A stretch of DNA of 64,000 nucleotides from Lachnospiraceae bacterium (GTDB lineage Bacteria; Bacillota; Clostridia; Lachnospirales; Lachnospiraceae), in the NCBI GenBank assembly GCA_030526195.1, contig JAUNDG010000008.1, positions 52,151 to 116,150 on the forward strand. The letters are read 5' to 3'. How positions within the stretch are numbered: the first letter of the stretch is position 1; each line of letters starts with the position of its first letter. This document shows, in pieces, positions 1 to 64,000 of the stretch. Below the pieces are notes generated by a model. It did not search any database, was not told the DNA's origin, and was given only the letters and a program-made list of their open reading frames with translations. The translations under genes and the position numbers were made by a program.

Positions 1-599
1 TTAATGTTGCTGCGATGCTGGAAAAAGGCCAGCACAATGAGCAGCACATAAACCACCATAGCCTGTCCCATGCCGTTGACCGGCATAGCCACCACGCCTG
101 TCAGACTTAAAGCAGCGGCGGCGACCACCGTCATCGAAAGGGCCACCAGTGAGCCCAGAGATACATAGTGAATCGTGAGCACAATGGTCAGAAAGATCAC
201 AAAGCCAAAAATAGCCAGCGGCCAGTACAGCATCACCGCCACACCCAAAGTGCAGGCGATACCTTTGCCGCCCTTAAAGCCCATATAGAAGGGGAAATTG
301 TGACCCAGCACGCAGCCAAGGCCTGCAAACAGGCCGATAAGATGCCCCATCGCCGGATCACCGCCGGCAAACAGAGCCCGAGCCACCAGGACAGCGACCA
401 CGCATTTTAAGAGGTCACCAAGCAACACCAGAGCCCCCACCTTTTTGCCGTAGCTGCGCAGCGCATTGGTGGTGCCGGCATTGCCGGAGCCCTTCTGACG
501 AATATCCTCCCCTCTCAGCTTGCTGTAGATAAAGGAGGTCTGGAAAAGACCGGCTGCATAGCCGATGATTAAAGAAAGAACGATCATTTTGATACTCAT
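1..599 (-). CDS. plsY: Glycerol-3-phosphate acyltransferase PlsY (3' end outside window)
   Basis: PlsY moves the acyl group of acyl-phosphate onto glycerol-3-phosphate, the first acylation step of phospholipid synthesis; it is an integral membrane protein. About 199 codons are visible and the frame is still open at base 1, so the C-terminus is missing. Family motifs are present: KLRGEDIRQKGSGNAGTTN near residue 30 and GHNFPFYMGFKGGKGIA near residue 100, within a chain of hydrophobic helices. The ATG overlaps the der stop codon by four bases (ATGA), so it is translationally coupled to and cotranscribed with der. Confidence 0.93.
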   Translation of the reverse strand, partial: MSIKMIVLSLIIGYAAGLFQTSFIYSKLRGEDIRQKGSGNAGTTNALRSYGKKVGALVLLGDLLKCVVAVLVARALFAGGDPAMGHLIGLFAGLGCVLGHNFPFYMGFKGGKGIACTLGVAVMLYWPLAIFGFVIFLTIVLTIHYVSLGSLVALSMTVVAAAALSLTGVVAMPVNGMGQAMVVYVLLIVLAFFQHRSNI

Positions 600-1927
600 T
601 TCTGATCCTTGTCCTTTCTCTCACGTACGATAAAATGAAGCGCCGTGCCCTTGAAGCCGAAGGTATCGCGGATCCGGTTTTCCAGATACCGGGTGTATGA
701 GAAATGCATCAGCTTCTTGTCATTTACGAAAATGACGAATGTGGGCGGCTTCACGCTGACCTGGGTCATGTAGTAAATGCGCAGGCGGCGTCCCTTATCT
801 GAGGGCGGCTGGTTAAGTGCCACGGCCTCTGCCAGGATTTCATTAAGAATACCGGTGGAAATGCGCTTGTTCTGGTTTTCGATAACCTCTTCGATGGTCT
901 CGAAAATCTTCGGCAGTCTCTGACCGGTTTCGGCGGACACAAAGAGAATCTCCGCATAGGGCATGTAGGCCAGCACATCCCGGACATCGTCCGTGAATTC
1001 CTTGACCGTATGATTGTCCTTTTCCACCGCATCCCATTTATTAACGGCGATGATCATGCCCTTGCCCCGTTCATGGGCAATACCGGCGATCTTGGCATCC
1101 TGCTCGGTGATGCCTTCTGTGGCATCGATGACCAGCACACACACATCGGCCCGCTCCACGGCGGTGACGGTGCGGATGATCATGTAGCGCTCCAGTTCCT
1201 CATTGATCCGGCTCTTCCGACGAAGACCGGCGGTGTCAACAAAGATGTATTCCTTCTTATTCCATTTCACACGGGTGTCAATGGCATCACGGGTTGTGCC
1301 CGCAATGTTGGAAACGATACAACGATTCTCACCCAGAAGCTTATTAATAATAGAGGATTTGCCCACGTTCGGCTTACCGATGATGGCAATACGCGGGATA
1401 TCTTCCTCCTCTTCCGCCTCTGACCGTTCATTGAAGTAGGCCACGACCTCATCCAGAAGGTCGCCGATACCCTGACGGTTGGCGGCGGAAATGGGATACG
1501 GATCCCCCAGGCCCAGATTATAGAATTCATATACATCGGCCTGCTGTTTTTTGAAATCATCTGTCTTGTTGACCGCCATGACGATGGGTTTAGCAGATTT
1601 TCTCAGAATGTCGGCCACGGAATAATCCGCATCCACAACACCCTGACGCACATCCACCATGAAAATGATAACGTCGGCTGTATCAATGGCGATCTGGGCC
1701 TGGGTTCTCATTTCCCTGAGAATCAGGTCCTGGGAGGCGGGTTCGATACCGCCGGTGTCGATTAATGTAAATGAATAACCTGACCACTCAACATCGGCAT
1801 AGATACGGTCACGGGTGACACCCGGTGTATCCTTGACGATGGAAATGTCAGCGCCGGCCAGTACATTAAATAAAGTCGACTTACCCACATTCGGGCGGCC
1901 GACAATAGCTGCAATAGGCTTGCTCAT
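596..1927 (-). CDS. der: Ribosome-associated GTPase Der (EngA)
   Basis: Der is the tandem-GTPase factor needed for maturation of the 50S ribosomal subunit. The 443-residue product has two G domains, with P-loops GRPNVGKST near the N-terminus and GKPNVGKSS near residue 180, G4 motifs NKTD and NKWD, and a C-terminal KH-like domain. The start at 1927 (MSKPIAAIVGRPNVGK) is preferred to an in-frame ATG further upstream because GGAAAGG lies just ahead of it and the motif normally starts at the N-terminus. A promoter is visible at 2010-2038; plsY follows with an ATGA overlap. Confidence 0.96.
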   Translation of the reverse strand: MSKPIAAIVGRPNVGKSTLFNVLAGADISIVKDTPGVTRDRIYADVEWSGYSFTLIDTGGIEPASQDLILREMRTQAQIAIDTADVIIFMVDVRQGVVDADYSVADILRKSAKPIVMAVNKTDDFKKQQADVYEFYNLGLGDPYPISAANRQGIGDLLDEVVAYFNERSEAEEEEDIPRIAIIGKPNVGKSSIINKLLGENRCIVSNIAGTTRDAIDTRVKWNKKEYIFVDTAGLRRKSRINEELERYMIIRTVTAVERADVCVLVIDATEGITEQDAKIAGIAHERGKGMIIAVNKWDAVEKDNHTVKEFTDDVRDVLAYMPYAEILFVSAETGQRLPKIFETIEEVIENQNKRISTGILNEILAEAVALNQPPSDKGRRLRIYYMTQVSVKPPTFVIFVNDKKLMHFSYTRYLENRIRDTFGFKGTALHFIVRERKDKDQK

Positions 1928-2009
1928 GCTGATATTACCTTTCCAAACATAACCGTAAAAAATGATCGCGGACAAAATTCCGCTATTACTGCATCGTAAT
2001 ACTGTATCA

Positions 2010-2038
2010 ATGATACCAATTGAAATCATTTTTGTAAA
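2010..2038 (-). promoter_or_regulatory. Promoter of der-plsY with palindrome
   Basis: On the minus strand TTTACA (2033-2038) is followed after 17 bases by TATCAT (2010-2015). A perfect 13-base palindrome, GTATCAATGATAC (2004-2016), covers the -10 box and the likely start site, so it could be an operator. Confidence 0.6.
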
Positions 2039-2043
2039 CATTC

Positions 2044-2072
2044 TTGAACGGGTATAGTCCGAATGTTATAAT
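2044..2072 (+). promoter_or_regulatory. Promoter of prs
   Basis: TTGAAC (2044-2049), 17-base spacer, TATAAT (2067-2072). The predicted start near 2079 leaves a leader of about 26 bases containing GAAGGAG seven bases before the ATG at 2105. It lies back to back with the der promoter. Confidence 0.8.
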
Positions 2073-2104
2073 CATTCTGCACTTCACAATGAAGGAGAAA
2101 AACT

Positions 2105-3295
2105 ATGTCTGATAAGATCAAGCGTCACATCACAAAGCCCGTTGCGCCGTTAAAACTGGCCTATCTTGAGGGTTCCGCTTACCTGGCTAAAGCCGTCAAT
2201 GAGATTCTTCTGAAAGAAAGACGAGCACTTGCCGCCGAGTATCCGGAACTGGCAGCCTGCCCCGATTATCAGGTGGATTCTTACCTGCTTGACTGCACTG
2301 CCACCCGTTACGGCACCGGCGAAGGCCGTGTCCGCATCAACGAAACTGTCCGCGGTACCGACCTTTATGTTTTCTGCGATATTACCAACTACAGTCCCAC
2401 CTTCAAGGTTTGCGGCCGTGAGAACCACATGTCCCCGGATAACCATTTCCAGGATCTGAAGCGTATCATTTCCGCTGCCAACGGTCGTGCTCACCGGATC
2501 AAGGTTATCATGCCCTTCCTTTATGAAGGGCGTCAGCACAAAAAGACAGGCCGTGAATCTCTCGACTGTGCTCTGGGACTTAAGGAACTGGTGGACATGG
2601 GTGTTTCCGAGATCATCACCTTCGATGCTCACGATCCCCGTGTCATGAACGCCATTCCGCTGTGTTCCTTTGACAACTACATGCCCACTTACCAGTTCAT
2701 GAAAGCTCTCATCACATCCGTTCCGGATCTGAAGACAGATAAAGAGCATTTCATGGTGGTCAGCCCCGACGAAGGTGCCATGGACAGAGGTCTTTACTTC
2801 TCCAACCTTCTGGGTGTCGATATGGGTACCTTCTACAAACGCCGCGATTATTCCAAGGTCGTTAACGGCCGTAACCCCATCGTGGCCCATGAATTCCTGG
2901 GTGATTCCGTTGAGGGCAAGGATGTGGTCGTCATCGACGATATGATTTCCTCCGGCGGTTCCATGCTGGATGTGTGCAAGCAGCTGAAGGAAAAAGGTTG
3001 CCGCCGTGTCTTCATCTGCGCCACCTTCGGTCTTTTCACCAATGGTATGGCTGACTTCGACAAGTATTATGAGCAGGGTCTCCTGGACAAGGTCATCTGC
3101 ACCAACCTGACCTACCTGCCGGAAGAGATTCTGGCGAAGCCCTACTTTGAGACCGCCAATATGTTTAACTATCTGACCAGCATCATCAACGCTGTTAACC
3201 ATGACTTGGCGTCCAACATTCACAGCACCCCCACTATGATCAATTCTCTTCTTGAGGAGCGTGAATCAGTCCGGTCACTGCTGGAAAGAAAGTAA
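2105..3295 (+). CDS. prs: Ribose-phosphate pyrophosphokinase (PRPP synthetase)
   Basis: Makes 5-phosphoribosyl-1-pyrophosphate from ribose-5-phosphate and ATP for purine, pyrimidine, NAD, His and Trp synthesis. The 396-residue product carries the PRPP-binding loop VVVIDDMISSGGSMLD near residue 280 and the FDAHDPRVMNAIP region near residue 180 that corresponds to the catalytic H-D-P segment. It is roughly 80 residues longer than the common 310-320 residue class, with extra sequence at both ends; longer forms occur in clostridia. Start supported by GAAGGAG and a clear promoter. It is followed by its own terminator and appears monocistronic. Confidence 0.93.
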   Translation: MSDKIKRHITKPVAPLKLAYLEGSAYLAKAVNEILLKERRALAAEYPELAACPDYQVDSYLLDCTATRYGTGEGRVRINETVRGTDLYVFCDITNYSPTFKVCGRENHMSPDNHFQDLKRIISAANGRAHRIKVIMPFLYEGRQHKKTGRESLDCALGLKELVDMGVSEIITFDAHDPRVMNAIPLCSFDNYMPTYQFMKALITSVPDLKTDKEHFMVVSPDEGAMDRGLYFSNLLGVDMGTFYKRRDYSKVVNGRNPIVAHEFLGDSVEGKDVVVIDDMISSGGSMLDVCKQLKEKGCRRVFICATFGLFTNGMADFDKYYEQGLLDKVICTNLTYLPEEILAKPYFETANMFNYLTSIINAVNHDLASNIHSTPTMINSLLEERESVRSLLERK

Positions 3296-3350
3296 TGACA
3301 GATGTTTCTGCCCGGCCACTGCCGGCAATACAACGCCATATGTGTTTATG

Positions 3351-3386
3351 GAGATCGTCGCCTGCGGGCGGCGATCTTTTTTTGTG
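3351..3386 (+). terminator. Rho-independent terminator of prs
   Basis: Stem AGATCGTCGCC / GGCGGCGATCT (one G-T pair) with loop TGCG, followed by seven Ts. Confidence 0.85.
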
Positions 3387-3731
3387 TTCCCTGTCACACA
3401 GATGATCTCAATCCCCGAAGCCTCATGTCCGCTTCACCATTTTCCCGTCAACCACCGAGACTCTCGACTGCCCGGGGTAAGGGGCCTCCGCCTGACAGGT
3501 CATCACGCCTGATCACTATATCTGCTGACCAGAAAATGGCAGAGCCCTATATCTATGAAAGGCCATGGAAAGCCACCACACTCTGTGCACATGTGACAAA
3601 TCTGTGTTCTCTTACCGTTAAGGCTTGAAAAATCCCACTCTTTATGACATACTATTACATAATCATTAAACAAAAGTGGATAGATGTGTCATTTCTCGAT
3701 ATAGATTTGACATGAAGGATTTACAGAACTT
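3387..3731 (+). other. Intergenic leader ahead of the NlpC/P60 gene
   Basis: About 345 bases without a convincing gene. It holds two copies of the GAAAATG/CATTTTC word (3438, 3532), a weak promoter-like TTGAAA (3625) with TACTAT (3650), and GAAGGA about a dozen bases before the ATG at 3732. Clostridial wall hydrolases of this kind are often under a c-di-AMP riboswitch, but I could not recognise that fold here. Confidence 0.4.
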
Positions 3732-5165
3732 ATGAAAAAACGATTACTTTGCCTCACTCTGGGCCTGTCGATGGCTCTGGCGGCACCGATGTCTGTTCTG
3801 GCCGATCAGGAATCCGATCTGAAGGCCCAGATCAATGCCAACGCCAATGCCTTGACAACAACGCAGGGTGACCTTAAAAACAACGAAACTGCTCACAACA
3901 TCGTTGAGGAAGAAATCACCAATCTGGATGCTGAGCTGGTTGACCTGATGGCCAACATCTCTCTTCTGGAAGCTGATCTGATCGACGCCGAAAACCGTCT
4001 GGTACAGAAAGGTGAGGAACTGGTGGTCGCCGAAGCCCAGTGTGATGAACAGTACGCTGATATGAAGACGCGTATCCAGTACATTTACGAAAATGGCTCC
4101 GACATGACCTGGCTCAGTTATCTGGCCGATGCCTCCTCCTTTGTGGATCTTCTGAACCGCTTCCAGTACGCTCAGGACATTAATAAATATGACCGCGAAG
4201 CCCTGGCCAGCTATGAAGAAACCGTCAACGAGATCGTGACGATCAAGGAAAACCTTGAATTCAAAAAAGAGGAAATGGCCGCCGAACAGGAAAGCCTTGA
4301 AACTCAGAAAGGCCGCCTGAATGAAGCTCTTGAAGAAAAGAAACAGATTTCAGCCGATTACGAAGCCGAGATCCTGGCCCTTCAGGAACAGGCCAATGCT
4401 CTGAACGCCACTATCGCCTCCCAGAACCAGCAGTTGCAGGCGATTCAGGAGGAAAAGAGACGTCAGGCTGAAGAAGAAGCCCGCCGCGCTGCTGAAGAAG
4501 CCGCCCGTAAGGCTGCCGAAGAAGAAGCCCAGCGTCAGCAGGAAGAAGCCAATAAGCCGGCCGAACCTGATAAACCGGCCGATGAAGCGCCGGCTCCTGC
4601 TCCGGACCCGACACCGGCTCCCACACCGGAACCGGCACCGCAGCCGGCTCCCCAGCCCGCACCGCCTTCCACCGGTAATCCTTCAGGGAATGCCGCTGCC
4701 AAGGCCGAGGCTCTGGCTAACCAGTATATGGGCAGCCCGTACCATGGTCGTATTCTTTCCGCCAACCGCGAGGCCGCTGCCGTGCAGCGCGCCGGTATCG
4801 GCTCTGAACTGGCCAACTTCGCCTGCTCCTTCGTCGGCAGAATCCCCTACGTTGTGGCCGGTGAAAGCCTTCAGACAGGTGTTGACTGTGCCGGTCTTGT
4901 CAAAGCCGTCTACGCCGTCTATGGTGTTCACTTTGATCGTAACCTTGAGCTCTTCAATCTGATGGGCGAAGCGGTTTCACCCAGCACAGCGGCTATGCAG
5001 CCCGGTGATGTTATCCTTTACTGGGCCGGCAGCGGTATCGGCCATGCCGCCATCTACATCGGCAACGGCATGATCGTCAACGCCAGTGATCCCTCCATCG
5101 GTCTTTGCACACGGCCCTTCAACTACAGAGCCATCGCCAGTGTCAGACGCTTCTTCTGCTATTGA
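3732..5165 (+). CDS. Secreted coiled-coil NlpC/P60 peptidoglycan hydrolase (CwlO/PcsB-like)
   Basis: Predicted exported endopeptidase that cuts peptidoglycan stem peptides during growth or division. A signal peptide (MKKRLLCLTLG..., cleavage after VLA near residue 24) precedes a long coiled coil (about 30-275) rich in Glu, Ala and Gln, a Pro/Ala linker (about 280-320), and a C-terminal NlpC/P60 domain. Catalytic Cys386 lies in GVDCAGLVKAVY and His438 in GIGHAAIYIG; the third polar residue is Asn (MIVNAS). The layout matches CwlO/PcsB proteins regulated by FtsEX, but no ftsEX genes are in the window. It is single, with its own terminator. Confidence 0.9.
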   Translation: MKKRLLCLTLGLSMALAAPMSVLADQESDLKAQINANANALTTTQGDLKNNETAHNIVEEEITNLDAELVDLMANISLLEADLIDAENRLVQKGEELVVAEAQCDEQYADMKTRIQYIYENGSDMTWLSYLADASSFVDLLNRFQYAQDINKYDREALASYEETVNEIVTIKENLEFKKEEMAAEQESLETQKGRLNEALEEKKQISADYEAEILALQEQANALNATIASQNQQLQAIQEEKRRQAEEEARRAAEEAARKAAEEEAQRQQEEANKPAEPDKPADEAPAPAPDPTPAPTPEPAPQPAPQPAPPSTGNPSGNAAAKAEALANQYMGSPYHGRILSANREAAAVQRAGIGSELANFACSFVGRIPYVVAGESLQTGVDCAGLVKAVYAVYGVHFDRNLELFNLMGEAVSPSTAAMQPGDVILYWAGSGIGHAAIYIGNGMIVNASDPSIGLCTRPFNYRAIASVRRFFCY

Positions 5166-5220
5166 TGCTGACAGCATAAGAAACCGATGAAAACAAATAC
5201 ATAACCATCCTGGTATTTAA

Positions 5221-5254
5221 CACCCCGGCAGGGTTTCTGCCGGGGTGTTTTTTT
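5221..5254 (+). terminator. Terminator of the NlpC/P60 gene
   Basis: Perfect 11-bp stem CACCCCGGCAG / CTGCCGGGGTG with loop GGTTT, then a run of Ts. Confidence 0.92.
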
Positions 5255-5316
5255 CTCTCCCATATTCAAATTATTTCCTCCATAGAAGAAGGGTGAAGGG
5301 ATCAACTCGCGCACCT

Positions 5317-5346
5317 TAAAAAGAGGCTGCCCATAGGGCAGCCTCT
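5317..5346 (-). terminator. Terminator of the EF-G-like gene
   Basis: Perfect stem AGAGGCTGCCC / GGGCAGCCTCT with a three-base loop; minus-strand transcripts run into TTTTT. Confidence 0.9.
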
Positions 5347-5385
5347 CAAAACGCGATTTGAAATTATGTTGTGAATTCCGATGGA

Positions 5386-7476: not shown

Positions 7477-7512
7477 AACTAACCTCCAAAAGGGTATAAC
7501 ATATTTAGCACT

Positions 7513-7541
7513 ATTGTACTAAACGCATGACCAAAAAACAA
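7513..7541 (-). promoter_or_regulatory. Promoter of the EF-G-like gene with overlapping palindrome
   Basis: TTGTTT (7536-7541), 17-base spacer, TACAAT (7513-7518) on the minus strand. The imperfect palindrome TTAGCACTATTGTACTAA (7505-7522) covers the -10 box and could be a repressor site. Confidence 0.6.
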
Positions 7542-7631
7542 GTGATTTGTATATTTTGTCCATTTTCCATCAAATTCCTACCCAATAATTGGTTAATAAT
7601 TCAACGCTTTATTTAATTAAAGTATTCTGTG

Positions 7632-7660
7632 TTGAACCAAAGGGTTCTACATGGTAAAAT
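7632..7660 (+). promoter_or_regulatory. Promoter of tyrA-aroA
   Basis: TTGAAC (7632-7637), 17-base spacer, TAAAAT (7655-7660). The leader is about 100 bases long and contains a possible hairpin, GCTTCAG (7676) with CTGAAGC (7719). I did not recognise a T-box or other known riboswitch in it. Confidence 0.7.
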
Positions 7661-7770
7661 AAACAGTTGAATGGTTGCTTCAGAGCCCCATTTCCGAAGG
7701 AAAGTCTCATCCGGACATACTGAAGCACACCGCCTATTACCGAAAAAGAATACCGAAAAGAAGGTGTATT

Positions 7771-16021: not shown

Positions 16022-17038
16022 ATGGCTATTCTTGTAACCGGTGGCTGCGGGTTTATCGGCAGCCATACCTGTGTGGAGCTTCTGAATGCCGGCTATGATG
16101 TGGTCATCTGCGACGACCTCTCCAATTCAAAGGCCGTCGTTGTGGACCGGATCCAGGCGATCACCGGCAAGCGCCCCGCCTTTTACAACATTGATATCAA
16201 GGATAAAGATGCGTTAACCTATGTCTTCGATATTGAAATGATCGAAGCCGTCATCCATTTCGCCGGTTTTAAGGCCGTGGGCGAATCTGTGGTCAAGCCC
16301 ATCGAATACTATCAGAACAATCTCATCGGTACCCTGACCCTGGTGGATGTGATGCGGGAGCACGACTGCAAAAAGCTGGTCTTCTCCTCCTCCGCCACGG
16401 TTTACGGCGATCCCGCCTTCGTGCCCATTACGGAAAGTTGCCCGTTAGGCGAGACCACCAATCCCTACGGCACCACCAAAGCCTGGCAGGAACGCATTTT
16501 CAAAGACATTTATTTTGCTGACAACAGTTGGCAGATCGTGTTGCTGCGCTATTTCAATCCCATCGGTGCCCACGAAAGCGGGCTCATCGGTGAGGATCCC
16601 AAGGGCATTCCCAACAACCTGGTGCCCTACGTGGCCCAGACAGCCCTCGGCATCCGGGAATGTCTCCACATTTTCGGAAATGATTATCCCACGCCGGACG
16701 GCACATGCATCCGGGATTACATCCACGTGGTGGACCTGGCCATCGGTCACATCAAAGCCATCGAGGCCATGGACCGTCTCAACGGCATCAGCATTTTCAA
16801 CCTGGGCACCGGCAAGGGCTCTTCCGTGCTTGATGTGGTGAATGCCTACTCAAAGGCCTGCGGCAAGGACATCCCTTATGTATTCGATGCCCGTCGCCCC
16901 GGGGACGTGACCACCTGCTATGCCGATCCCAGCCTGGCCGCCGAGATCCTGGGCTGGAAAGCCGAACGCACCCTCGAGCAGATGTGCGCCGACTCCTTCC
17001 GCTGGCAGTCCATGAATCCCACCGGCTATCCGGATTAA
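16022..17038 (+). CDS. galE: UDP-glucose 4-epimerase
   Basis: Interconverts UDP-glucose and UDP-galactose (NAD-dependent SDR family), for galactose use and surface polysaccharide. The 338-residue protein starts with the Rossmann loop VTGGCGFIGSHTCVELL and has the catalytic Tyr-x3-Lys as YGTTK near residue 148, with upstream Ser in FSSSATVYGD. The ATG at 16022 is preferred over 16016 because GAAAGGA lies nine bases before it but only three before the other. No other Leloir gene is adjacent. A terminator follows. Confidence 0.94.
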   Translation: MAILVTGGCGFIGSHTCVELLNAGYDVVICDDLSNSKAVVVDRIQAITGKRPAFYNIDIKDKDALTYVFDIEMIEAVIHFAGFKAVGESVVKPIEYYQNNLIGTLTLVDVMREHDCKKLVFSSSATVYGDPAFVPITESCPLGETTNPYGTTKAWQERIFKDIYFADNSWQIVLLRYFNPIGAHESGLIGEDPKGIPNNLVPYVAQTALGIRECLHIFGNDYPTPDGTCIRDYIHVVDLAIGHIKAIEAMDRLNGISIFNLGTGKGSSVLDVVNAYSKACGKDIPYVFDARRPGDVTTCYADPSLAAEILGWKAERTLEQMCADSFRWQSMNPTGYPD

Positions 17039-18290: not shown

Positions 18291-18350
18291 GGCAGGACTC
18301 CTTCCGCTGTGACTTAGCGCTTAGTTTTAAGAAAATGTGTTTTCGGGTAA

Positions 18351-18634: not shown

Positions 18635-18706
18635 TGACCCCAAGCAGATTCGAACTGCTGTTACCGCCGTGAAAGGGCGATGTCTTAACCGCTTGACCAT
18701 GGGGCC
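18635..18706 (-). tRNA. tRNA-Glu(TTC), copy 1
   Basis: Seventy-two bases, anticodon loop CTTTCAC. Identical in sequence to the tRNA at 20728-20799. Confidence 0.95.
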
Positions 18707-18711
18707 TTAAA

Positions 18712-18783
18712 CTCCCCGAGTTGGGCTCGAACCAACAACCCCTCGGTTAACAGCCGAGTGCTCTACCATTGAGCTATCGAGGA
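18712..18783 (-). tRNA. tRNA-Asn(GTT), copy 1
   Basis: Seventy-two bases, anticodon loop CTGTTAA. Identical to the tRNA at 20805-20876. Together with tRNA-Glu and flanks, 18632-18784 equals 20725-20877. Confidence 0.95.
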
Positions 18784-18815
18784 AAATGTTTTGTTAATTG
18801 CCTGTCGCTCCATCT

Positions 18816-20727: not shown

Positions 20728-20799
20728 TGACCCCAAGCAGATTCGAACTGCTGTTACCGCCGTGAAAGGGCGATGTCTTAACCGCTTGACCATGGGGCC
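20728..20799 (-). tRNA. tRNA-Glu(TTC), copy 2
   Basis: Identical to 18635-18706. Confidence 0.95.
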
Positions 20800-20804
20800 T
20801 TAAA

Positions 20805-20876
20805 CTCCCCGAGTTGGGCTCGAACCAACAACCCCTCGGTTAACAGCCGAGTGCTCTACCATTGAGCTATCGAGGA
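20805..20876 (-). tRNA. tRNA-Asn(GTT), copy 2
   Basis: Identical to 18712-18783. Confidence 0.95.
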
Positions 20877-20907
20877 ATGTCTCTCGCTTATCGCTCGCGA
20901 CTTGATT

Positions 20908-30985: not shown

Positions 30986-31085
30986 GCATTTCTTTAAATC
31001 GCGCACGCCACAGTACCTGCTCACCGCTCATCATTATATCATTTTCCACTCTGCCGACAAAGGGTCGACGCTAAAAAAGCATAAG

Positions 31086-34952: not shown

Positions 34953-36425
34953 TCAGTGTGACAATTTCCTGAACATGGCTAAAATGTCTTCACCACCGGG
35001 CTCAACACAAATCTCTCTCTTCTTGCCGGATGCGCCGATGATCTCACGCAGGTCGGACAGAGACAGTTCCGGTTTGAAGTATTTAAGCTGGAAGGCCACA
35101 TTGCCCATGGATGTGCTCTCACCTTCACAGGCCACCATCGGCTTGCCCAGATGGCGGGATGACAGATTCAGCAGAATCCGGCTGGCAGAGCCACCGCCCA
35201 CGATGTAGACCTTTTCAAAGGTCTGGCCGGTAATCTTTTCGATATTGTGGATAACCTCAGCATAAGCGCAGGCCAGTGTTTCGTAGAAAGCTCTGAACAG
35301 AACTTCCCAACGCAGTTTGCCTGACACCTGACCGGTCTTTGTCAGATACTTCCAAAGCGCTTCGGACATGCTGATCGGGTTGAAGAAAGCGGCATCGTTG
35401 ATGTCGAAGACCACGGTTTCCGTGCAGTTTTCGGCCATCTCCGTGATCTCATCCCAGGAAACCTTACGGCCCTGTTTGAAATCGTACTCTTTCTTCAGTT
35501 CGTTAACAATGAACATACCGGCATTGTTGCGCAGCAGTGTGATCCGGCCCAGAGCCCCGACTTCGTTGGTCAGGTTCGCTTCCATAATAGCCTCATTGAT
35601 GATGGGCTCTTTCAGCTCAGCACCGATCAGTGACCAGGTACCGCAGCTAATGAAAGCAAAAGGTTCTTCGGCAGCCGGAATAGCAGCCACGGCAGCCCCT
35701 GTATCATGGGACGGCACGCACACAACCGGAATGTCATAGTCTACACCGATTTCTTCCAGGATATCTTTTTTCACATAACCGATCAGCTTACCATGCTCAC
35801 CGATCTTGCCGAAGAAAGATTCCGGAATCCCGAATTTCTCACAGATCTTCGGGTTAATCTTCTGGGTACAGGCATCCATCAGCTGTGTTGTGGACAGTTC
35901 GGAGGGTTCGTTCACCATTTCCCCTGTGAGGAAATAGTTGAAGACATCCGGCACCATCAGCAGACGAGATGCATTTTCGAAAATGACCGGAAAATGTTCT
36001 TTCATACCGGCCATCATATAAACGGAATTGATCTTATCGCACAGAATACCGGTCTCATTGAAGATCTCTTTCTTCTCTTCTTCAGAGAGGTTACCGATCA
36101 TCTTCTCACCGATGGTGTTGCGGTAACTCAGCGGGTTGCTGATCATATGACCGTCCTTGTCGAACAGGGCAAAGTCAACACCCCAGGTGGCGATACCGAC
36201 AGAATCGATATGACCGTATTCGGCAGCAATAGTCTTCAGATCCTGTTTAAAGGTGCTGAAGATTTTAAGGAAATCCCAGTAGTAATAGTCTCCGATCTTC
36301 ACCATGCCATTCGGTGTCTGGCTGATGACCTTATTGACGATTCGGCCGTCGCGGTATTCACCCATGACGGTACGGAATGAGCTATTGCCGCAGTCAAGGG
36401 CAACCATTCTTAATACATTTCCCAT
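34953..36425 (-). CDS. FGGY-family sugar kinase, rhamnulokinase-like
   Basis: A 490-residue carbohydrate kinase close in length and layout to rhamnulokinase (RhaB). It has the phosphate-1 loop region VALDCGNSSFRTV, WGVDFALFDKDG, the substrate segment PLSYRN, CVPSHDTGAAVAAIP near residue 237, and adenosine-binding IVGGGSASRILL near residue 420. The canonical RhaB DxGxxSGR start reads DCGNSSFR here, so the substrate may not be rhamnulose. AAGGAG lies close to the ATG. No isomerase or aldolase gene accompanies it, unlike standard rhamnose or fucose operons. Confidence 0.85.
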   Translation of the reverse strand: MGNVLRMVALDCGNSSFRTVMGEYRDGRIVNKVISQTPNGMVKIGDYYYWDFLKIFSTFKQDLKTIAAEYGHIDSVGIATWGVDFALFDKDGHMISNPLSYRNTIGEKMIGNLSEEEKKEIFNETGILCDKINSVYMMAGMKEHFPVIFENASRLLMVPDVFNYFLTGEMVNEPSELSTTQLMDACTQKINPKICEKFGIPESFFGKIGEHGKLIGYVKKDILEEIGVDYDIPVVCVPSHDTGAAVAAIPAAEEPFAFISCGTWSLIGAELKEPIINEAIMEANLTNEVGALGRITLLRNNAGMFIVNELKKEYDFKQGRKVSWDEITEMAENCTETVVFDINDAAFFNPISMSEALWKYLTKTGQVSGKLRWEVLFRAFYETLACAYAEVIHNIEKITGQTFEKVYIVGGGSASRILLNLSSRHLGKPMVACEGESTSMGNVAFQLKYFKPELSLSDLREIIGASGKKREICVEPGGEDILAMFRKLSH

Positions 36426-41160: not shown

Positions 41161-41224
41161 AGCCACCTTATGAAAATGATGTGGCCGGCAACGGTCATTC
41201 ATCGATTATCGCTCTATCACACTT

Positions 41225-49096: not shown

Positions 49097-49207
49097 AGTG
49101 TTTTCTCCTTTTGGGTTTTTGGTACTGCCCCTCCGGGCCCCGCAGACTCATTTTCGAAAATGGGGCTCCCGGAGGCGGACAGTTCTGGTTTATGAAAATG
49201 ATGCGTC
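49097..49207. repeat. fruA-ptsH spacer with perfect palindrome
   Basis: The spacer holds CATTTTCGAAAATG (49149-49162), flanked by GGGCC/GGCTCC inverted bases, and another GAAAATG at 49194-49200. No T-run follows the hairpin on the minus strand, so it is not a standard terminator; it could tune the fruA/ptsH ratio. Confidence 0.45.
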
Positions 49208-56000: not shown

Positions 56001-56097
56001 AAATGCTTCTTTTCTCTTCCTGATTTCTGCCTGAGGTCATCACGTTTTTTCATGATTCATCCACTGAGTCACAAACCAAACATGAAGCGCCTCGGAT

Positions 56098-57009: not shown

Positions 57010-57019
57010 ATAGCTAATA

Positions 57020-57655: not shown

Positions 57656-57785
57656 CTTTCTTTTCTTTCTATTTTTTCATCATTCTTGCGACATCTCGTC
57701 ACACCTCGCCCAGGATCACGGTTTCCCCGTAAGATCAGGGGCAACGCACAAGCCGGATGCTCTGCAACACAAAGCCGTCCGGGGA

Positions 57786-57850
57786 AAAGCAGACACCCGC
57801 AGTCTCCACAGGGTACGATGTGCGCTTTGCAACTTGTCCGTCCTTCGGTT
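57786..57850 (+). repeat. Dispersed ~60-base intergenic repeat, copy D
   Basis: AAAGCAGACACCCGCAGT, CCACAGGGTACGATGTGCGC, then TTTGCAACTTGTCCGT. Lies between tsaB and rimI and may interrupt the operon transcript with secondary structure. Confidence 0.55.
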
Positions 57851-57855
57851 TATGC

Positions 57856-58608: not shown

Positions 58609-59057
58609 CCTTCAACCTGCTTTCCCGTCACGGTGATGATGCGGATATCATCCCCCAGCTCGGGCGCTCTTTCTATTTCAATACGAATCGTGTCGGCGGG
58701 CATCAGTTCCCGGACCTCATCGGCCCATTCCACCAGGCAGACCCCGTCGCCATCCAGATAATCCTCAAAGCCGATCTCATCCATTTCCACCGGATCATCG
58801 ATGCGGTACACATCAAAATGATAAAACGGCAAACGGCCTTCGTCATATTCCTGCAGGATCGTAAATGTGGGGCTGCTGACGGCCTCTGTGATGCCGATGC
58901 CCTCTGCAAAGCCCTTGGCCAGCACCGTTTTGCCGGCTCCCAGATTCCCGATCAGGGCGTAGACTTCTCCTTTTTTTGCCGCCTCGGCCAGCTTGCGACC
59001 GAAGGCTTTTGTCTCTTCCGAACTATGGCTTACGTATTCCAAACTATTTTCCTCCAT
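58605..59057 (-). CDS. tsaE: tRNA threonylcarbamoyladenosine biosynthesis ATPase TsaE
   Basis: ATPase that resets the TsaB-TsaD complex. The 150-residue protein has Walker A IGNLGAGKTVLAKGFAEGIG near residue 40, SSPTFTILQEY, and YHFDVYRI. The start at 59057 (MEENSLEYVS) gives the family length. AAAGGG is close to the ATG, and a good -10 box lies only ten bases upstream, so its mRNA may be nearly leaderless. First gene of tsaE-tsaB-rimI-rnz-tsaD-ispD. Confidence 0.93.
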   Translation of the reverse strand: MEENSLEYVSHSSEETKAFGRKLAEAAKKGEVYALIGNLGAGKTVLAKGFAEGIGITEAVSSPTFTILQEYDEGRLPFYHFDVYRIDDPVEMDEIGFEDYLDGDGVCLVEWADEVRELMPADTIRIEIERAPELGDDIRIITVTGKQVEG

Positions 59058-59067
59058 AATCCCTTTC

Positions 59068-59096
59068 AGTATAACACAGGGATTTTTCAGGAACAA
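59068..59096 (-). promoter_or_regulatory. Promoter of the tsaE cluster
   Basis: TTGTTC (59091-59096), 17-base spacer, TATACT (59068-59073). The expected start near 59061 is about four bases before the ATG. Confidence 0.6.
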
Positions 59097-59280
59097 TGGG
59101 TCCGAGGGATTATGCACGGCAGACACACAAGTGCCTGTCACACATAGACGAAGCACCGGGCTTGTGATATGATACTGTTTACATTTTTTAAGAAAATGGG
59201 GCTGCCATCCGGCGAAGGTCTTCTCTATCCCGCCCGGCACAAAGTCCCGTGATCATAACACCAAAAAGGAGGCATCCACT

Positions 59281-59799
59281 ATGTCCAATCCCATCGTAAC
59301 CATCACCATGGCTGACGGCGGCGTCATCAAAGCCGAGCTTTATCCGGAAATCGCCCCGAACACAGTCAACAACTTCATCAGCCTTGTCAAGAAAGGCTTC
59401 TATGACGGTGTCATCTTCCACCGCGTCATCCCCGGCTTCATGATCCAGGGCGGTGACCCGAAGGGCACAGGCTCAGGCGGTCCGGGCTACTCCATCCGCG
59501 GTGAATTCTCCTCCAACGGCTTTAAGAACACACTCAGCCACGAAAGAGGCGTCCTTTCCATGGCCCGCACCATGATGCCCAACAGCGCCGGCTCTCAGTT
59601 CTTCATCATGCATGAATATGCCCCGCACCTGAATGGCGAATATGCCGCCTTCGGCAAGGTTCTGGAAGGCATGGAAGTGGTCGATAAGATTGCCAATGCC
59701 GACCGTGACCACTATGATCGTCCCTTCGAAGATCAGACTATGGCCACTGTCACTGTGGACACTCAGGGCGTTGATTATCCGGAACCGGACAAGATGTAA
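59281..59799 (+). CDS. Cyclophilin-type peptidyl-prolyl isomerase
   Basis: Cytoplasmic cyclophilin of 172 residues that speeds prolyl cis-trans isomerisation. Motifs: FHRVIPGFMIQGGDP near residue 46 with the active-site Arg, then AGSQFFIMHEYAPHLNGEYA and FGKVLEGMEVV. No signal peptide. AGGAGG lies eight bases before the ATG. Monocistronic with a terminator. Confidence 0.94.
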   Translation: MSNPIVTITMADGGVIKAELYPEIAPNTVNNFISLVKKGFYDGVIFHRVIPGFMIQGGDPKGTGSGGPGYSIRGEFSSNGFKNTLSHERGVLSMARTMMPNSAGSQFFIMHEYAPHLNGEYAAFGKVLEGMEVVDKIANADRDHYDRPFEDQTMATVTVDTQGVDYPEPDKM

Positions 59800-59861
59800 G
59801 CCCGCGGGTGCGCGACTCACGGTCCGCACTGCCACATCGTGTGCAGCCTGAATAAGTAAGT

Positions 59862-59912
59862 AAAAAGCGTATGAGCATTGTCTAACCGACATAGTTCATA
59901 CGCTTTTTTATT
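59862..59912 (+). terminator. Terminator of the cyclophilin gene
   Basis: Arms AAAGCGTATGA (59864-59874) and TCATACGCTTT (59896-59906) around a 21-base loop, then TTTTA. Confidence 0.75.
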
Positions 59913-60124
59913 TGTTTATGAAACCCGCGACTCATGGATCGTGGGTTCTCACCATAACGTTCATAAAGCCCGCGCCCCGTGGGCCGACGCAGCGACATTC
60001 GCCCGAGGAGCCCGAAGACCAAAGGGCTGAGGGGGACGAAGCGGGAGCGAGGCGGTCCATGGCTGCGGGTATTACCCACAACGTTTAATAAAGCCCATGG
60101 ATCGCGGACTATATAATTATGTGG
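59908..60124. repeat. Intergenic region with internal direct repeats
   Basis: Two similar blocks lie about 110 bases apart: CATAACGTTCATAAAGCCC (from about 59952) and CACAACGTTTAATAAAGCCC (from about 60076), each near an ATGGATCG(T/C)GG word. The space between is GC-rich and purine-rich. No gene is seen; a repeated hairpin element is the best description. Confidence 0.45.
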
Positions 60125-60775
60125 TTACTCCGGCACGACCTCGCCCTCGATCAGGCTGTAGGCCATCGCCTCCCCTTTCTCCATCACAGCCCGTCCGGCT
60201 GTCAGATCCGTCACCGCCGCCATCACCCGGTCGACCGCTTCCGGGTCCAGCACGATGGTGGTTTCCACATCTGCGCCGTATACCGTGTTCATGATCAGGA
60301 TTTCCTGCTGGCGGAACATATACTTCAGCTTGCCGTCATCGTTGTAATTGGCGGTCACCTTGACCGGAAACCCCTGGCGGACCTCCCGATACACCGCATT
60401 TTCCAAAGCGGCCTTCACGGCGCCGGAATACGCCCGGATCAGACCGCCCACCCCAAGGAGTGTGCCGCCGAAATAACGGGTCACCACAGCGATCACATCG
60501 TGCAGTTCCTCGCCCTGCAGCACCGTCAGCATGGGACGGCCGGCAGAACCGCCGGGTTCACCGTCGTCGTTGGACCGGACAATCTCAAAATCTGATCCCA
60601 CCACAAAGGCAGAACAATGATGACGGGCATCATAATACTTCTTCTTCTGGGCCGCCAGGAAGGCTTCAGCCTCAGCTTCATTTTCCACATGCGCCAGCTC
60701 GGCGATAAACCGTGACTTCTTTTCCACGATCTCGCCCACCGCTGTGCCCACGATGGTCTTTCTTGATTCACTCAT
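60125..60775 (-). CDS. YigZ/IMPACT family protein
   Basis: A 216-residue protein of the UPF0029/IMPACT (YigZ) family, linked in eukaryotes to Gcn2 control but of unknown role in bacteria. Signature: DDGEPGGSAGRPMLTVLQGE near residue 70 and VTRYFGGTLLGVGGLIRAY near residue 98, followed by the C-terminal DUF1949-like half. Ribosome site is poor (AAGGG about 11 bases upstream). Confidence 0.9.
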   Translation of the reverse strand: MSESRKTIVGTAVGEIVEKKSRFIAELAHVENEAEAEAFLAAQKKKYYDARHHCSAFVVGSDFEIVRSNDDGEPGGSAGRPMLTVLQGEELHDVIAVVTRYFGGTLLGVGGLIRAYSGAVKAALENAVYREVRQGFPVKVTANYNDDGKLKYMFRQQEILIMNTVYGADVETTIVLDPEAVDRVMAAVTDLTAGRAVMEKGEAMAYSLIEGEVVPE

Positions 60776-60826
60776 GAATTCTCAAACCCTTAGTTCATAA
60801 TCTGGCCTGTCCGAGCCGGCCGCTGC

Positions 60827-61426
60827 TCATTTCGTTTTCAGACTGTTGATGATGGCCAGAACGTCCTCATCCTCCAGGGACACACCGCCGATATCGGCCA
60901 CATCCACCGGAATATTGAGCTGGAACACCTTGCCGTTGCCGGCATCAATGAAAACGAGGTCGTAAATATTCATAAAGCCTTCTTCCACCAGATCCTCGGT
61001 GCGGGCCTCATAGGCGATGCAATCACCATTTTCCGCAGTGAAACTGAACTCTTCCGCTTCATCGTACCAGTAGACGATCATCTCAGCCTGGTCCGCCAGA
61101 CTGTTTTCATAAAGGTAAATGTAGATGGACGGTTTGGTCAGTGAATCCCAGTCATTTTCTCCGCCTTTGACCAGCACGTAGCTGTCCGTCTTCATGGGGA
61201 AGTCGCCGTTGTCATCGGGATCGGCGAAAATGTCCTGCTGAAGCTGACCCATCCAGCCGGCGGGCACATCCACCGTAAAGTCGCCCACATCCACATTTTC
61301 GACAAGAAGCGGTTTATCTTCCGTACCGCTGCCGGTCTCGGCCGCAGCTGAGCCGCCTGAAGAGCCGCAGGCTGTCAGCCCCAGGAGCATGGCACTCATC
61401 AGAATCACTGCTGTTAAACGTTTCAT
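60827..61426 (-). CDS. Predicted lipoprotein of unknown function
   Basis: A 199-residue exported lipoprotein: signal MKRLTAVILMSAMLLG with lipobox LTAC, a Ser/Gly/Ala linker, then a compact acidic domain with DFTVDVPAGWMGQLQQDIF and a C-terminal VSLEDEDVLAIINSLK. It resembles small extracellular lipoproteins of gut Clostridia without known role. Start at 61426 fits GGAGGACAGGAT ahead of the ATG; an upstream in-frame ATG is less likely. Confidence 0.75.
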   Translation of the reverse strand: MKRLTAVILMSAMLLGLTACGSSGGSAAAETGSGTEDKPLLVENVDVGDFTVDVPAGWMGQLQQDIFADPDDNGDFPMKTDSYVLVKGGENDWDSLTKPSIYIYLYENSLADQAEMIVYWYDEAEEFSFTAENGDCIAYEARTEDLVEEGFMNIYDLVFIDAGNGKVFQLNIPVDVADIGGVSLEDEDVLAIINSLKTK

Positions 61427-61653
61427 ATCCTGTCCTCCGTTAGTTTCCGTCAGAAACATCATTTTCATCAGAAAGAAGTGACCGCTCTCGAACTTGTCAA
61501 GCAGCCACGCGCGATCGCGCTTAAGACTCTGCGTCTTTGAAGCGGGGAGTATGCTTGCTGCAGTTCATGGTGCGGCATCTTATGTACTGTCATCATAGCA
61601 TGAGGCACGCCATTTTCGCAATATTCCCCATTTTCCGTGGCCTGACAGGCTCT
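61427..61653. other. Intergenic region between divergent genes
   Basis: No gene seen. Holds three CATTTTC words (61460, 61611, 61629) and the perfect palindrome GCGCGATCGCGC (61509-61520). Confidence 0.45.
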
Positions 61654-61681
61654 TTTACAGAGGAACCGAAGATGGTATAAT
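61654..61681 (+). promoter_or_regulatory. Promoter of the penicillin-binding protein gene
   Basis: TTTACA (61654-61659), 16-base spacer, TATAAT (61676-61681). The predicted start coincides with the ATG at 61688, so the transcript may be leaderless. Confidence 0.65.
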
Positions 61682-61687
61682 ACGCCT

Positions 61688-64000
61688 ATGAATTACGACA
61701 GATATCATTTAAACAAAAAAATCGAAAAACTGAAGCATGCGGATACCGGCGCCCACCTCGGAGTGGTGGCCATCCGTCTCATTGTCTTCCTGGCCGTCGC
61801 CGCCGTTGTGGTGATCACGGCCCTCTCCATCGGCTCCGTCCACGGCATCATCGCCAACGCGCCGGATATCGACGATATCAATTTCGCGCCCACCGGTTTT
61901 GCCACCTTTATCTATGACACCGACGGCAACCAGATGCAGAAGCTCACCACCTCCGACTCCAACCGGACCGCCGTCTCTCTGGAGAAAATCCCGGAGGATC
62001 TTCAGCATGCCGTGGTGGCCATCGAGGACGAGCGCTTCTACGAGCACAAAGGCATCGATCCCCAGGGTATCGTCCGCGCCCTCTTCGTGGGTGTGACCAA
62101 TAATTTCCGTTTCACGGAAGGGGCCAGCACCATCACCCAGCAGCTGCTCAAAAACAATGTCTTCACCACCTGGACCAGTGAAAAATCGCTGATGGACCGG
62201 GTGAAGCGTAAGTTCCAGGAACAGTACCTGGCGGTTCTTCTGGAGGAAAAGCTGGATAACAAGAACCTGATCCTGGAGAACTACCTCAACACCATCAACC
62301 TTGGCGCCGGCACCTACGGTGTGCAGGCGGCTTCCCGGAAATATTTCAACAAGGATGTGTCCGAGCTGACATTGTCCGAGTGCGCTGTCATCGCCGGCAT
62401 TACCCAGAACCCCAGCCGTTACAATCCCATCCGGCATCCGGATGAAAATGCTGAGCGCCGGGAGCGTGTGCTGACCAAGATGGTCGAGCAGGGCTACATC
62501 TCCGAAGCTGAAAAAAATGAAGCTCTGGCCGATCCGGTTTATCAGCGGATCGCCATTTCCCAGAATAATAACAAGACCAACACCGTCTACTCCTACTTCG
62601 TGGATGAGCTCATCAGCCAGGTAAAGGATGACCTGATGCGTGAAAAGGGTTATTCTGAAACGCAGGCTTATCAGATGCTGTATTCCGGCGGTCTGCGGAT
62701 CTACACCACACAGGATCCGGCTATGCAGGCCATTATGGATGAGGAGTACACCAACGAAGAAAACTTCCCGGCAGGCGTGCAGTTCACCTTTGACTGGGCC
62801 TTGTCTGTCCGTCACAGCAACGGCGAGCTGCAGCATTTCAGTAAGGAACAGATGCGGAAATGGTTCCGCGAAAATGTGGATCCTGAGTTTAATCTCCTCT
62901 TCAATTCTTCTGAGGAGATCGAAAATGTACTGGCCCAGTACAAGGCCGCCGTTGTCCGGCCGGATGACGAGATTGTGGCCGAGCGTATCAGCTACGCGCC
63001 TCAACCCCAGTCTTCCATGGTCATCATGGATCAGCACACCGGCCAGGTAAAAGCCCTGGTGGGCGGCCGCGGCGAAAAGACCGCCTCCCTGACACTGAAC
63101 CGGGCCACAGATTCCAAGCGCCAGCCCGGCTCCACCTTCAAGGTAGTGTCCACCTATGCCCCGGCCATCGATCGGTTCGGCATGGACCTGAGCACCCCCT
63201 ATGTGGATGAACCCTACAATTACGCCACAGGCCGTCCGGTACGTGACTGGTCCGGGGATAATTACATGGGGCCCATCACCATCCGACAGGCTATTGCCCA
63301 GTCCGTCAACGTAGTGGCGGTCAAATGTCTCACCGACATCGGCCCCCACACCGGCTATGAGCAGCTGCTCCGCTTCGGTTTCACCACACTGGATGAAGAA
63401 CATGATGCCCTGCAGCCTCTGGCATTGGGCGGTATCTACTATGGTGTCACCAACCTGGAACTGACCGCTGCCTACGCGTCCATCGCCAACAACGGCGTTT
63501 ACACAAAGCCGATCTTCTACACACGGATCGAGGATCAGTACGGCAATATCGTGCTTGAGAACACACCGGAGGTTCACGAGGCCATCAAGCCCGAAACCGC
63601 CTACCAGCTGCAGGTGGCCATGCAGGACGTTGTCAATTGCGGCACCGGCGGAGCGCTCCGCCTTGCCTGCGGCATGCCGGTGGCCGGCAAGACCGGCACC
63701 ACCTCCCGCTACAATGACGTCTGGTTTGTGGGATACACCCCCTACCTGACCTGTGGTGTCTGGGCCGGCTATGACAACGGCGAATACCTGGGCGGTGCCG
63801 ACCGGGATTATCACAAGGTTCTGTGGAACAAAGTCATGAATCGGATTGCTTCCACTCAGCCGCTGCGCCATTTCACAGCGCCGGAAGGTGTCAATGCCGC
63901 CTACTATGACGGATTAGGGGCCGCTCCCATCACACCGGAGCCCACTCCGACCCCCTCTGAAACACCCACACCGACGCCCACAGCGACACCCACACCCACA
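61688..64000 (+). CDS. Class A penicillin-binding protein (3' end outside window)
   Basis: Bifunctional peptidoglycan synthase. At least 771 residues are visible and the frame is open at the right edge. A cytoplasmic stretch and one membrane helix (about 20-60) precede the GT51 transglycosylase (AIEDERFYEHKGIDPQGI near residue 112; GASTITQQLLKNN; NLGAGTYGVQAASRKYF). The transpeptidase follows, with SxxK in QPGSTFKVVS near residue 480, SxN in AQSVNVVAVK near 538, and KTG in AGKTGTTSRY near 667. The end is a Pro/Thr repeat tail (TPTPTATPTPT). There is no good ribosome site; GAGGA is over 20 bases away. Confidence 0.93.
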   Translation, partial: MNYDRYHLNKKIEKLKHADTGAHLGVVAIRLIVFLAVAAVVVITALSIGSVHGIIANAPDIDDINFAPTGFATFIYDTDGNQMQKLTTSDSNRTAVSLEKIPEDLQHAVVAIEDERFYEHKGIDPQGIVRALFVGVTNNFRFTEGASTITQQLLKNNVFTTWTSEKSLMDRVKRKFQEQYLAVLLEEKLDNKNLILENYLNTINLGAGTYGVQAASRKYFNKDVSELTLSECAVIAGITQNPSRYNPIRHPDENAERRERVLTKMVEQGYISEAEKNEALADPVYQRIAISQNNNKTNTVYSYFVDELISQVKDDLMREKGYSETQAYQMLYSGGLRIYTTQDPAMQAIMDEEYTNEENFPAGVQFTFDWALSVRHSNGELQHFSKEQMRKWFRENVDPEFNLLFNSSEEIENVLAQYKAAVVRPDDEIVAERISYAPQPQSSMVIMDQHTGQVKALVGGRGEKTASLTLNRATDSKRQPGSTFKVVSTYAPAIDRFGMDLSTPYVDEPYNYATGRPVRDWSGDNYMGPITIRQAIAQSVNVVAVKCLTDIGPHTGYEQLLRFGFTTLDEEHDALQPLALGGIYYGVTNLELTAAYASIANNGVYTKPIFYTRIEDQYGNIVLENTPEVHEAIKPETAYQLQVAMQDVVNCGTGGALRLACGMPVAGKTGTTSRYNDVWFVGYTPYLTCGVWAGYDNGEYLGGADRDYHKVLWNKVMNRIASTQPLRHFTAPEGVNAAYYDGLGAAPITPEPTPTPSETPTPTPTATPTPT

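What the first reader, a model, noticed from the sequence alone, without database searches (positions are those of the whole stretch)
1..64000. The 7-mer GAAAATG/CATTTTC is about ten-fold over-represented
A hand scan of both strands finds roughly 70-80 copies (about 30 as GAAAATG and 44 as CATTTTC on the plus strand); a random 7-mer would be expected about 8 times. Codon use alone does not explain it. At least fifteen copies are intergenic, for example 3438, 3532, 7561, 18331, 18782, 31040, 41172, 49149, 49156, 49194, 59192, 61460, 61611 and 61629. The preceding G is specific: AAAAATG, CAAAATG and TAAAATG are far rarer. Two copies meet head to head as CATTTTCGAAAATG (35972, 49149). Copies are nearly absent from the EF-G-like and xdh genes. 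Candidates are a Chi-type recombination signal, an uptake sequence, or a chromosome-organising or methylation motif.
Basis: partly seen in the sequence, partly recalled or inferred. Interest (0 to 1): 0.75.

Follow-up and report, generated by a model that had tools for sequence, protein, structure and literature searches.

The report
Over-represented DNA word with species dialects
A ruminant-gut bacterium known only from DNA carries thousands of copies of the short DNA word GAAAATG on both strands of its chromosome, and related species carry altered versions of the word, which hints at a signal for recognising their own DNA, although no protein that reads it is known yet.

Summary
The window holds 77 GAAAATG; the genome (2.54 Mb; Lachnospiraceae-type, inferred from relatives) holds 3510, against 211 of the reversed control word. 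Codon-shuffled genes give a third of the observed number, and intergenic DNA shows a similar excess over a Markov model.

GGAAATG is enriched too, so the word is GRAAATG. The coding excess is equal in sense and antisense (799, 813). In this genome head-to-head copies form a 14-bp palindrome far above chance (39 pairs, background 1.6); most high-motif relatives lack this pairing. GAAAATG, but not GGAAATG, is near expectation in viral contigs related to the resident prophage.

Across 42 genomes of the genus the word has dialects around G-N-AAATG: GGCAAATGCC in G028, TGCAAATG in G025 and G020. Which form prevails follows the Der protein tree (2 changes, 0 of 5000 shuffles as low).

Best reading: a self-genome signature built up by sequence-biased uptake or recombination, working like Neisseriaceae uptake-sequence dialects. 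Chi and KOPS are disfavoured. No reader protein was identified; the mechanism is inferred.

The parts
1..64000 (.). All 77 GAAAATG copies: + strand at 728,1661,3532,4089,8176,9593,9643,18331,18782,19922,22533,22689,26015,26990,29381,35979,35990,37610,41172,42908,45231,45344,49156,49194,51284,56158,56823,58105,59192,61226,62444,62870,62921; as CATTTTC at 3438,7561,8574,14847,15432,15498,16495,16669,16792,19138,19385,19667,21768,22070,22605,25890,28331,28580,29009,31040,35972,37139,42212,42284,43091,46250,46310,47182,48883,49149,50650,52159,52637,56298,57049,57367,60397,60679,61027,61153,61294,61460,61611,61629; plus 44 GGAAATG/CATTTCC, positions not listed
   Evidence: codon-shuffle test
35972..35985 (.). 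14-bp head-to-head palindrome CATTTTCGAAAATG (coding)
49149..49162 (.). 14-bp head-to-head palindrome CATTTTCGAAAATG (intergenic)
16669..16682 (.). mixed palindrome CATTTTCGGAAATG, one A-type and one G-type half (coding)
3438..3444 (-). intergenic GAAAATG
3532..3538 (+). intergenic GAAAATG
7561..7567 (-). intergenic GAAAATG
18331..18337 (+). intergenic GAAAATG
18782..18788 (+). GAAAATG overlapping the 5' end of the tRNA-Asn gene (18711-18784, - strand)
31040..31046 (-). intergenic GAAAATG
41172..41178 (+). intergenic GAAAATG
49194..49200 (+). intergenic GAAAATG
61611..61617 (-). intergenic GAAAATG
61629..61635 (-). intergenic GAAAATG

Best explanation
GRAAATG is a dispersed double-strand DNA word that works as a signature of the chromosome. 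Shown: it is enriched at DNA level in genes and between genes, with equal sense and antisense excess; in this genome it is arranged head to head as a 14-bp palindrome far above chance; its GAAAATG form is near expectation in viral contigs related to the resident prophage; and the genus has dialects around a G-N-AAATG core whose prevailing form follows the Der protein tree. Inferred: a sequence-specific DNA-binding protein whose specificity changes between clades reads it, and the word accumulates by molecular drive, because DNA that carries it is preferentially taken up or recombined (as with Neisseriaceae uptake sequences), mostly at synonymous sites. No reader protein was identified.
For: 3510 copies vs 211 reversed control. 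Codon-shuffle excess 3.1x in genes, Markov excess 3.4x between genes. Excess 799 sense, 813 antisense. Head-to-head gap 0: 39 vs a background of 1.6; non-motif inverted 7-mers show no gap-0 peak. GAAAATG: rest of contig C39 307 vs 84 (3.6x), its prophage 10 vs 6.6 (1.5x), 17 closely related viral-contig loci 44 vs 42.6 (1.03x). Dialects: GGCAAATG 120 vs 9.6 in G028; TGCAAATG 17 vs 2.6 in G025 and 10 vs 1.3 in G020; flank table. The label 'GCAAATG ratio above GAAAATG ratio' (7 of 31 species) needs 2 changes on the Der tree, 0 of 5000 shuffles as low. Ratio 2.0-17.9 in 42 genomes of the genus, 0.9-4.7 in 115 others of the order. ComEC-type family in 38 of 42 genomes, own included.
Against: GGAAATG does not share the contrast with phages: by subtraction it is 22 vs about 8.6 in the prophage and 86 vs about 46 in the 17 related viral loci. 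No prepilin signature and no secretion-ATPase motif by regex in the held 49% of the genome; no uptake data exist. The ComEC family also rings in E. coli and in low-motif relatives, so it discriminates nothing. The pairing is peculiar to this genome: the exact palindrome is found 44 times here, 6 in G023, 2 in G015 and 0-1 in the other genus members searched, among them the high-motif G016, G019 and G032 with 0, and G028 shows no gap-0 pair. The strength of GAAAATG enrichment does not follow the tree (867 of 5000 shuffles as low). The word is short and its excess about 3x.
Confidence: 0.33

Rival explanations
1. Binding site of an abundant chromosome-organising or regulatory protein, probably a dimer in this species, whose sites are kept by weak selection; dialects arise as the protein's specificity drifts.
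For: 14-bp head-to-head palindrome enriched about 25x in this genome, secondary rise at gaps 3-6; T preferred at -4, as a partial second half-site would give; equal sense and antisense excess.
Against: The exact palindrome is rare in other high-motif genomes (G016, G019, G032: 0). Part of the rise at gaps 3-6 is general: non-motif inverted 7-mers are also 1.6-2x commoner at those gaps than at gaps 50-60. 2664 sites in 1.25 Mb; shifting so many weak sites by selection alone is hard (argument, not tested). No candidate protein.
Confidence: 0.2
2. Methylation-coupled drive as proposed for HIP1: a methyltransferase plus biased mismatch repair creates and fixes the word.
For: Species-variable over-represented words with alternative forms are described for HIPs (PMC4390886, abstract and first part of section 3.4 read).
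Against: No PF00145 match and no PF01555 match over the cut-off in this genome. PF00145 is in 6 of 42 genomes, two of them (G011, G028) with a high GAAAATG ratio. GRAAATG is not a palindrome itself. Other methyltransferase families were not searched.
Confidence: 0.2
3. Chi-type hotspot read by AddAB during break repair.
For: AddB matches in 41 of 42 genomes, own included, 3 over the curated cut-off; words of this size are typical of Chi (recalled); intergenic copies lean to the G-rich strand, 190 to 143 with 27 unclear.
Against: Equal sense and antisense excess (raw coding counts 1112 on the G-rich strand, 899 on the other, 293 unclear). Dialects differ between species whose AddB keeps residues at the places of F68 and F210 (five genomes compared by eye, only G000 aligned to the solved AddB, positions counted by hand).
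Confidence: 0.1
4. Compositional or codon-context by-product without a recognising protein.
For: Much of the 11x raw excess comes from composition and codon use; AAATG as a whole is 2x enriched; other codon-context biases exist; GTAAATG and TTAAATG are also raised on small counts; GGAAATG is raised in phages too.
Against: Intergenic DNA shows the excess as well; near neighbours differ (GCAAATG 1.3x, GAAGATG 0.6x); palindromic pairing; a 12x enriched 8-mer in G028.
Confidence: 0.1

Closest known systems
DNA uptake sequence (DUS) dialects of Neisseriaceae
   Same: Thousands of copies per genome and dialects that follow the phylogeny around a shared short core (CTG there, G-N-AAATG here); PMC3630211, passages seen.
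   Different: Different sequence and phylum; shorter and weaker in this species; no receptor (ComP) and no uptake shown.
HIP1 of cyanobacteria
   Same: Highly iterated short word that is rare or replaced by another word in some relatives; PMC4390886, abstract and first part of section 3.4 read.
   Different: HIP1 is a GC-rich palindrome associated with methyltransferases; this word is AT-rich and asymmetric, and the two methyltransferase families searched have no match over cut-off in this genome.
Chi / AddAB hotspots
   Same: Over-represented short word; AddB present.
   Different: Equal sense and antisense excess; dialects within a genus.
Noc-binding sites and CodY boxes (recalled, not tested against a database)
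   Same: 14-15 bp palindromes with GAAA-type half-sites.
   Different: Half-site and spacing differ (gap 1, as in the CodY box, has 3 pairs against 39 at gap 0); copy number here is far higher.

Membership tests
DNA uptake sequence (DUS/USS) | Over-representation beyond codon use, in genes and between genes | tested here: met
   about 3x here, 12x for GGCAAATG in G028
DNA uptake sequence (DUS/USS) | Dialects that share a core and follow the phylogeny | tested here: met
   one gene tree, 31 of 42 genomes, label chosen after seeing the counts
DNA uptake sequence (DUS/USS) | Poor in foreign DNA (recalled feature) | tested here: inconclusive
   met for GAAAATG (prophage 10 vs 6.6; 17 related viral loci 44 vs 42.6; rest of contig 307 vs 84), not for GGAAATG
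DNA uptake sequence (DUS/USS) | Pilus-type uptake machinery with a DNA receptor | tested here: inconclusive
   ComEC-type family present; no prepilin or secretion-ATPase regex hit in the held 49% of the genome
DNA uptake sequence (DUS/USS) | Motif-dependent uptake of DNA by competent cells | not testable with these tools
   needs a culture
HIP1-like iterated palindrome | The word itself is a palindrome | tested here: not met
   GRAAATG is asymmetric; 39 gap-0 pairs among 2664 sites
HIP1-like iterated palindrome | Matching DNA methyltransferase in the genome | tested here: inconclusive
   PF00145 no match, PF01555 below cut-off in G000; other families not searched
Chi site | Over-represented on the leading strand | tested here: not met
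   coding excess 799 sense, 813 antisense; intergenic 190:143 is a weak lean; origin and terminus unknown, strand judged by local GC skew
Chi site | AddAB or RecBCD present | tested here: met
   AddB match of 828 bits, below the curated cut-off of 903.7
KOPS / SpoIIIE recognition sequence | Very strong strand polarity | tested here: not met

The most novel reading that the evidence does not exclude
A genus of Lachnospiraceae known only from metagenomes has its own DNA self-recognition language: a G-N-AAATG word with clade-specific dialects that governs which DNA is taken up or recombined, comparable to Neisseriaceae uptake sequences but evolved independently in Gram-positive bacteria.
Probability: 0.27. 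Interest if true: 0.85.

Novelty: new variant of a known kind. Interest (0 to 1): 0.6.

Why it matters
Uptake-sequence dialects are known to me from Gram-negative families (recalled). A dialect family in a large gut lineage would offer a natural comparative experiment on how thousands of sites and their reader change together, and would suggest a barrier to gene flow among ruminant-gut bacteria.

Tried and rejected
Glu-Asn/His-Phe codon pairs as sole cause: rejected. KOPS or SpoIIIE polarity: rejected. Generic palindrome excess: non-motif inverted 7-mers number 114 at gap 0 against 88-114 at gaps 50-60, so no gap-0 peak, though they are 160-203 at gaps 3-6. Complementarity beyond 7 bp: not clear (15 and 13 of 39 at the next two bases). 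Start-codon context: copies are even along genes apart from a dip in the last tenth. Terminators: 15 of about 360 intergenic sites are followed by GGGCTG or GGGCTC, some in hairpins as judged by eye; tail-to-tail pairs rise slightly at gaps of about 16-29. PF01555: 16 of 42 genomes over cut-off; of the nine with GAAAATG ratio 8.8 or more only G019 clearly and G028 marginally, no formal test. ComEC and AddB: nearly universal, so uninformative. Site turnover between sisters G011 and G032: the chosen locus was not shared beyond short pieces, so not done. Literature: the listings (10 of 514 papers listed) showed no paper on this motif in Lachnospiraceae; only open-licence PMC text is held.
Full report
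What was checked. In the 64-kb window GAAAATG occurs 33 times on the plus strand and 44 times as CATTTTC; it is the commonest 7-mer, and the other three NAAAATG words are rarer (29, 12, 10). Base composition predicts 6.7 copies. Stricter nulls leave about a threefold excess: 64 copies in window genes against 22.9 in codon-shuffled genes (maximum 33 of 200 shuffles), 528 against 157 under an order-3 Markov model in 457 kb, 441 against 143 after codon shuffling of the genes called in those 457 kb (385 genes), and 85 against 25 by a Markov model in their intergenic DNA. Over the whole genome there are 3510 copies against 211 of the reversed word. Gene calls are my own ORF-based calls.

The motif. 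In the Markov test the only other strongly enriched one-base neighbour is GGAAATG (356 vs 131), so the word is GRAAATG, with weaker preferences for T at -4 and a purine after it. In the codon-shuffle test GTAAATG (78 vs 30.5) and TTAAATG (45 vs 16.1) are also raised, GCAAATG hardly (40 vs 30.1). In 1.255 Mb (49% of the genome, window included) there are 2664 GRAAATG sites. The excess over codon shuffling is 799 in sense and 813 in antisense. Judged by local GC skew, intergenic copies lean slightly to the G-rich strand (190 to 143, 27 unclear), and raw coding counts are 1112 to 899 with 293 unclear. Copies are even along genes apart from a dip in the last tenth. Glu-Asn dipeptides are about as common as in five relatives with weaker enrichment (1.37 vs 1.35 of expectation), while His-Phe is raised (1.55 vs 0.95), so most of the effect sits in synonymous choice.

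Pairing. Two copies often meet head to head: gap 0 gives 39 pairs, gaps 3 to 6 give 11, 12, 7 and 6, gap 1 three, gap 2 none, against about 1.6 per spacing farther out; tandem pairs show no such peak, and tail-to-tail pairs only a small rise at gaps of about 16-29. Inverted repeats of other 7-mers have no gap-0 peak but are 1.6-2x commoner at gaps 3-6 than at 50-60, so that part of the pattern is partly general; complementarity does not clearly run past 7 bp. Genome-wide there are 44 exact CATTTTCGAAAATG and none of the reversed control, and 217 degenerate pairs with a gap of at most 25 against 2 for the control. This looks like a dimer site, most sites being single halves. It is peculiar to this genome: in the 36 other genus members the exact palindrome occurs 6 times in G023, 2 in G015, once in six others and not at all in the rest, including the high-motif G016, G019 and G032; G028 has no gap-0 pair in 155 kb.

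Chromosome against phage. Contig C39 carries a prophage (integrase, DNA polymerase, portal, tape measure and endolysin by PHROGs). GAAAATG is 10 against 6.6 shuffled in its 46 called genes, 307 against 84 in the rest of the contig, 44 against 42.6 in 17 closely related viral-contig loci and 24 against 18.4 in 7 more distant ones; 8 loci of the 32 found were left out as short, and the loci overlap in ancestry. GRAAATG as a whole is 32 vs 15.2, 500 vs 140, 130 vs 88.7 and 64 vs 39.4, so GGAAATG by subtraction is raised in phages too. The contrast between self and foreign DNA therefore holds for GAAAATG only.

Relatives. G000 itself is not named. A scan with the EF-G-like protein returned mostly Lachnospiraceae metagenome assemblies, several from ruminants (best 80 of 223); equal contig lengths link G021 to SUG1151, G025 to RUG13328, G020 to RUG12161, G026 to UW_DM_LCO1_1 and G017 to RGIG5770. 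The ratio of GAAAATG to its reversed control is 2.0 to 17.9 in 42 genomes of the genus (own included) and 0.9 to 4.7 in 115 other genomes drawn from the order. High values occur in several branches (G000; G016 and G019; the sisters G011 and G032), and their spread on the tree does not differ from shuffled labels (6 changes; 867 of 5000 as low).

Dialects. GCAAATG is near its control in G000 (288 vs 181) but 3156 vs 157 in G028 and 3.7 to 8.4 times its control in G001, G003, G004, G017, G020, G022 and G025; G016, G019 and G009 have both forms, and G013, G023 and G029 reach 3.7 to 4.5 with the A form still higher. Codon-shuffle tests on sampled DNA agree for G028, G001, G025 and G020, not clearly for G017 (16 vs 7.3 in 62 kb), and for G011 give 7 vs 1.7, more than its genome ratio of 1.8 suggests. 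In G028 the word is longer, GGCAAATGCC (GGCAAATG 120 vs 9.6; sense 66 vs 4.1, antisense 54 vs 6.3). G025 and G020 prefer TGCAAATG; G016 and G011 favour A after AAATG; G027 shows nothing. G013 and G015 have other enriched words. On a tree of the single protein Der (31 of 42 genomes; for the others no full-length locus was held) the label 'GCAAATG ratio above GAAAATG ratio' (7 species) needs 2 changes, fewer than any of 5000 shuffles; two other cut-offs that I tried need 5 and 6 changes. The labels were chosen after seeing the counts. Relatives were sampled with 32 to 155 kb each, so weak dialects could be missed.

Mechanism. KOPS-like polarity is excluded by the equal sense and antisense excess. 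Chi is disfavoured by the same fact, by the dialects, and by AddB keeping residues at the places of F68 and F210, two Chi-binding positions named in PMC4824097 (passages seen), in the five genomes compared by eye. Methylation-linked drive as in HIP1 is weakened: no PF00145 match and no over-cut-off PF01555 match in this genome, but other methyltransferase families were not searched. A dimeric DNA-binding protein explains the pairing in this genome but not its absence in high-motif relatives. Uptake-biased drive explains the dialects, the strand symmetry and the low GAAAATG in phages, and a ComEC-type family is present in 38 of 42 genomes, but no pilin or secretion-ATPase signature was found in the half of the genome that I held. 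I commit to sequence-biased uptake or recombination as most likely, at about one in three. That this is a real DNA-level enrichment with dialects I hold at about 0.9.

Known or new. The closest kind is the DUS dialect family (PMC3630211, passages), then HIPs (PMC4390886, abstract and first part of section 3.4). On the tests made it cannot be filed under either. The listings showed no paper describing it.

Noticed in passing
G000 contig C39:117000-163500 (loci L030-L033): A prophage of about 46 kb; 17 viral-contig loci carry a portal protein 82-89% identical to its own.
   Followed up: partly
G000, 457-kb sample: A separate dispersed repeat family around AAGCGGACACTCGCAATA, about 10 copies in the sample, with related AGCGGAC words enriched in intergenic DNA.
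   Followed up: no
L105:7704-7811 (G011) and many places in G011 and G032: A GC-rich palindromic repeat (GGGGACGGTTCTTCGC...) dispersed in both genomes.
   Followed up: no
G013 and G015 samples: Other enriched words: TTTAAA and CCAAAAGG in G013, TCCGGAA and TTCCGGAA in G015.
   Followed up: no
G000 intergenic, e.g. window 49156: Recurrent context GAAAATGGGGCTG/GAAAATGGGGCTC; some look by eye like terminator hairpins that contain the motif.
   Followed up: partly
window 18635-18784 and 20728-20877: Two tRNA-Glu/tRNA-Asn pairs with the same spacing, suggesting a local duplication.
   Followed up: no
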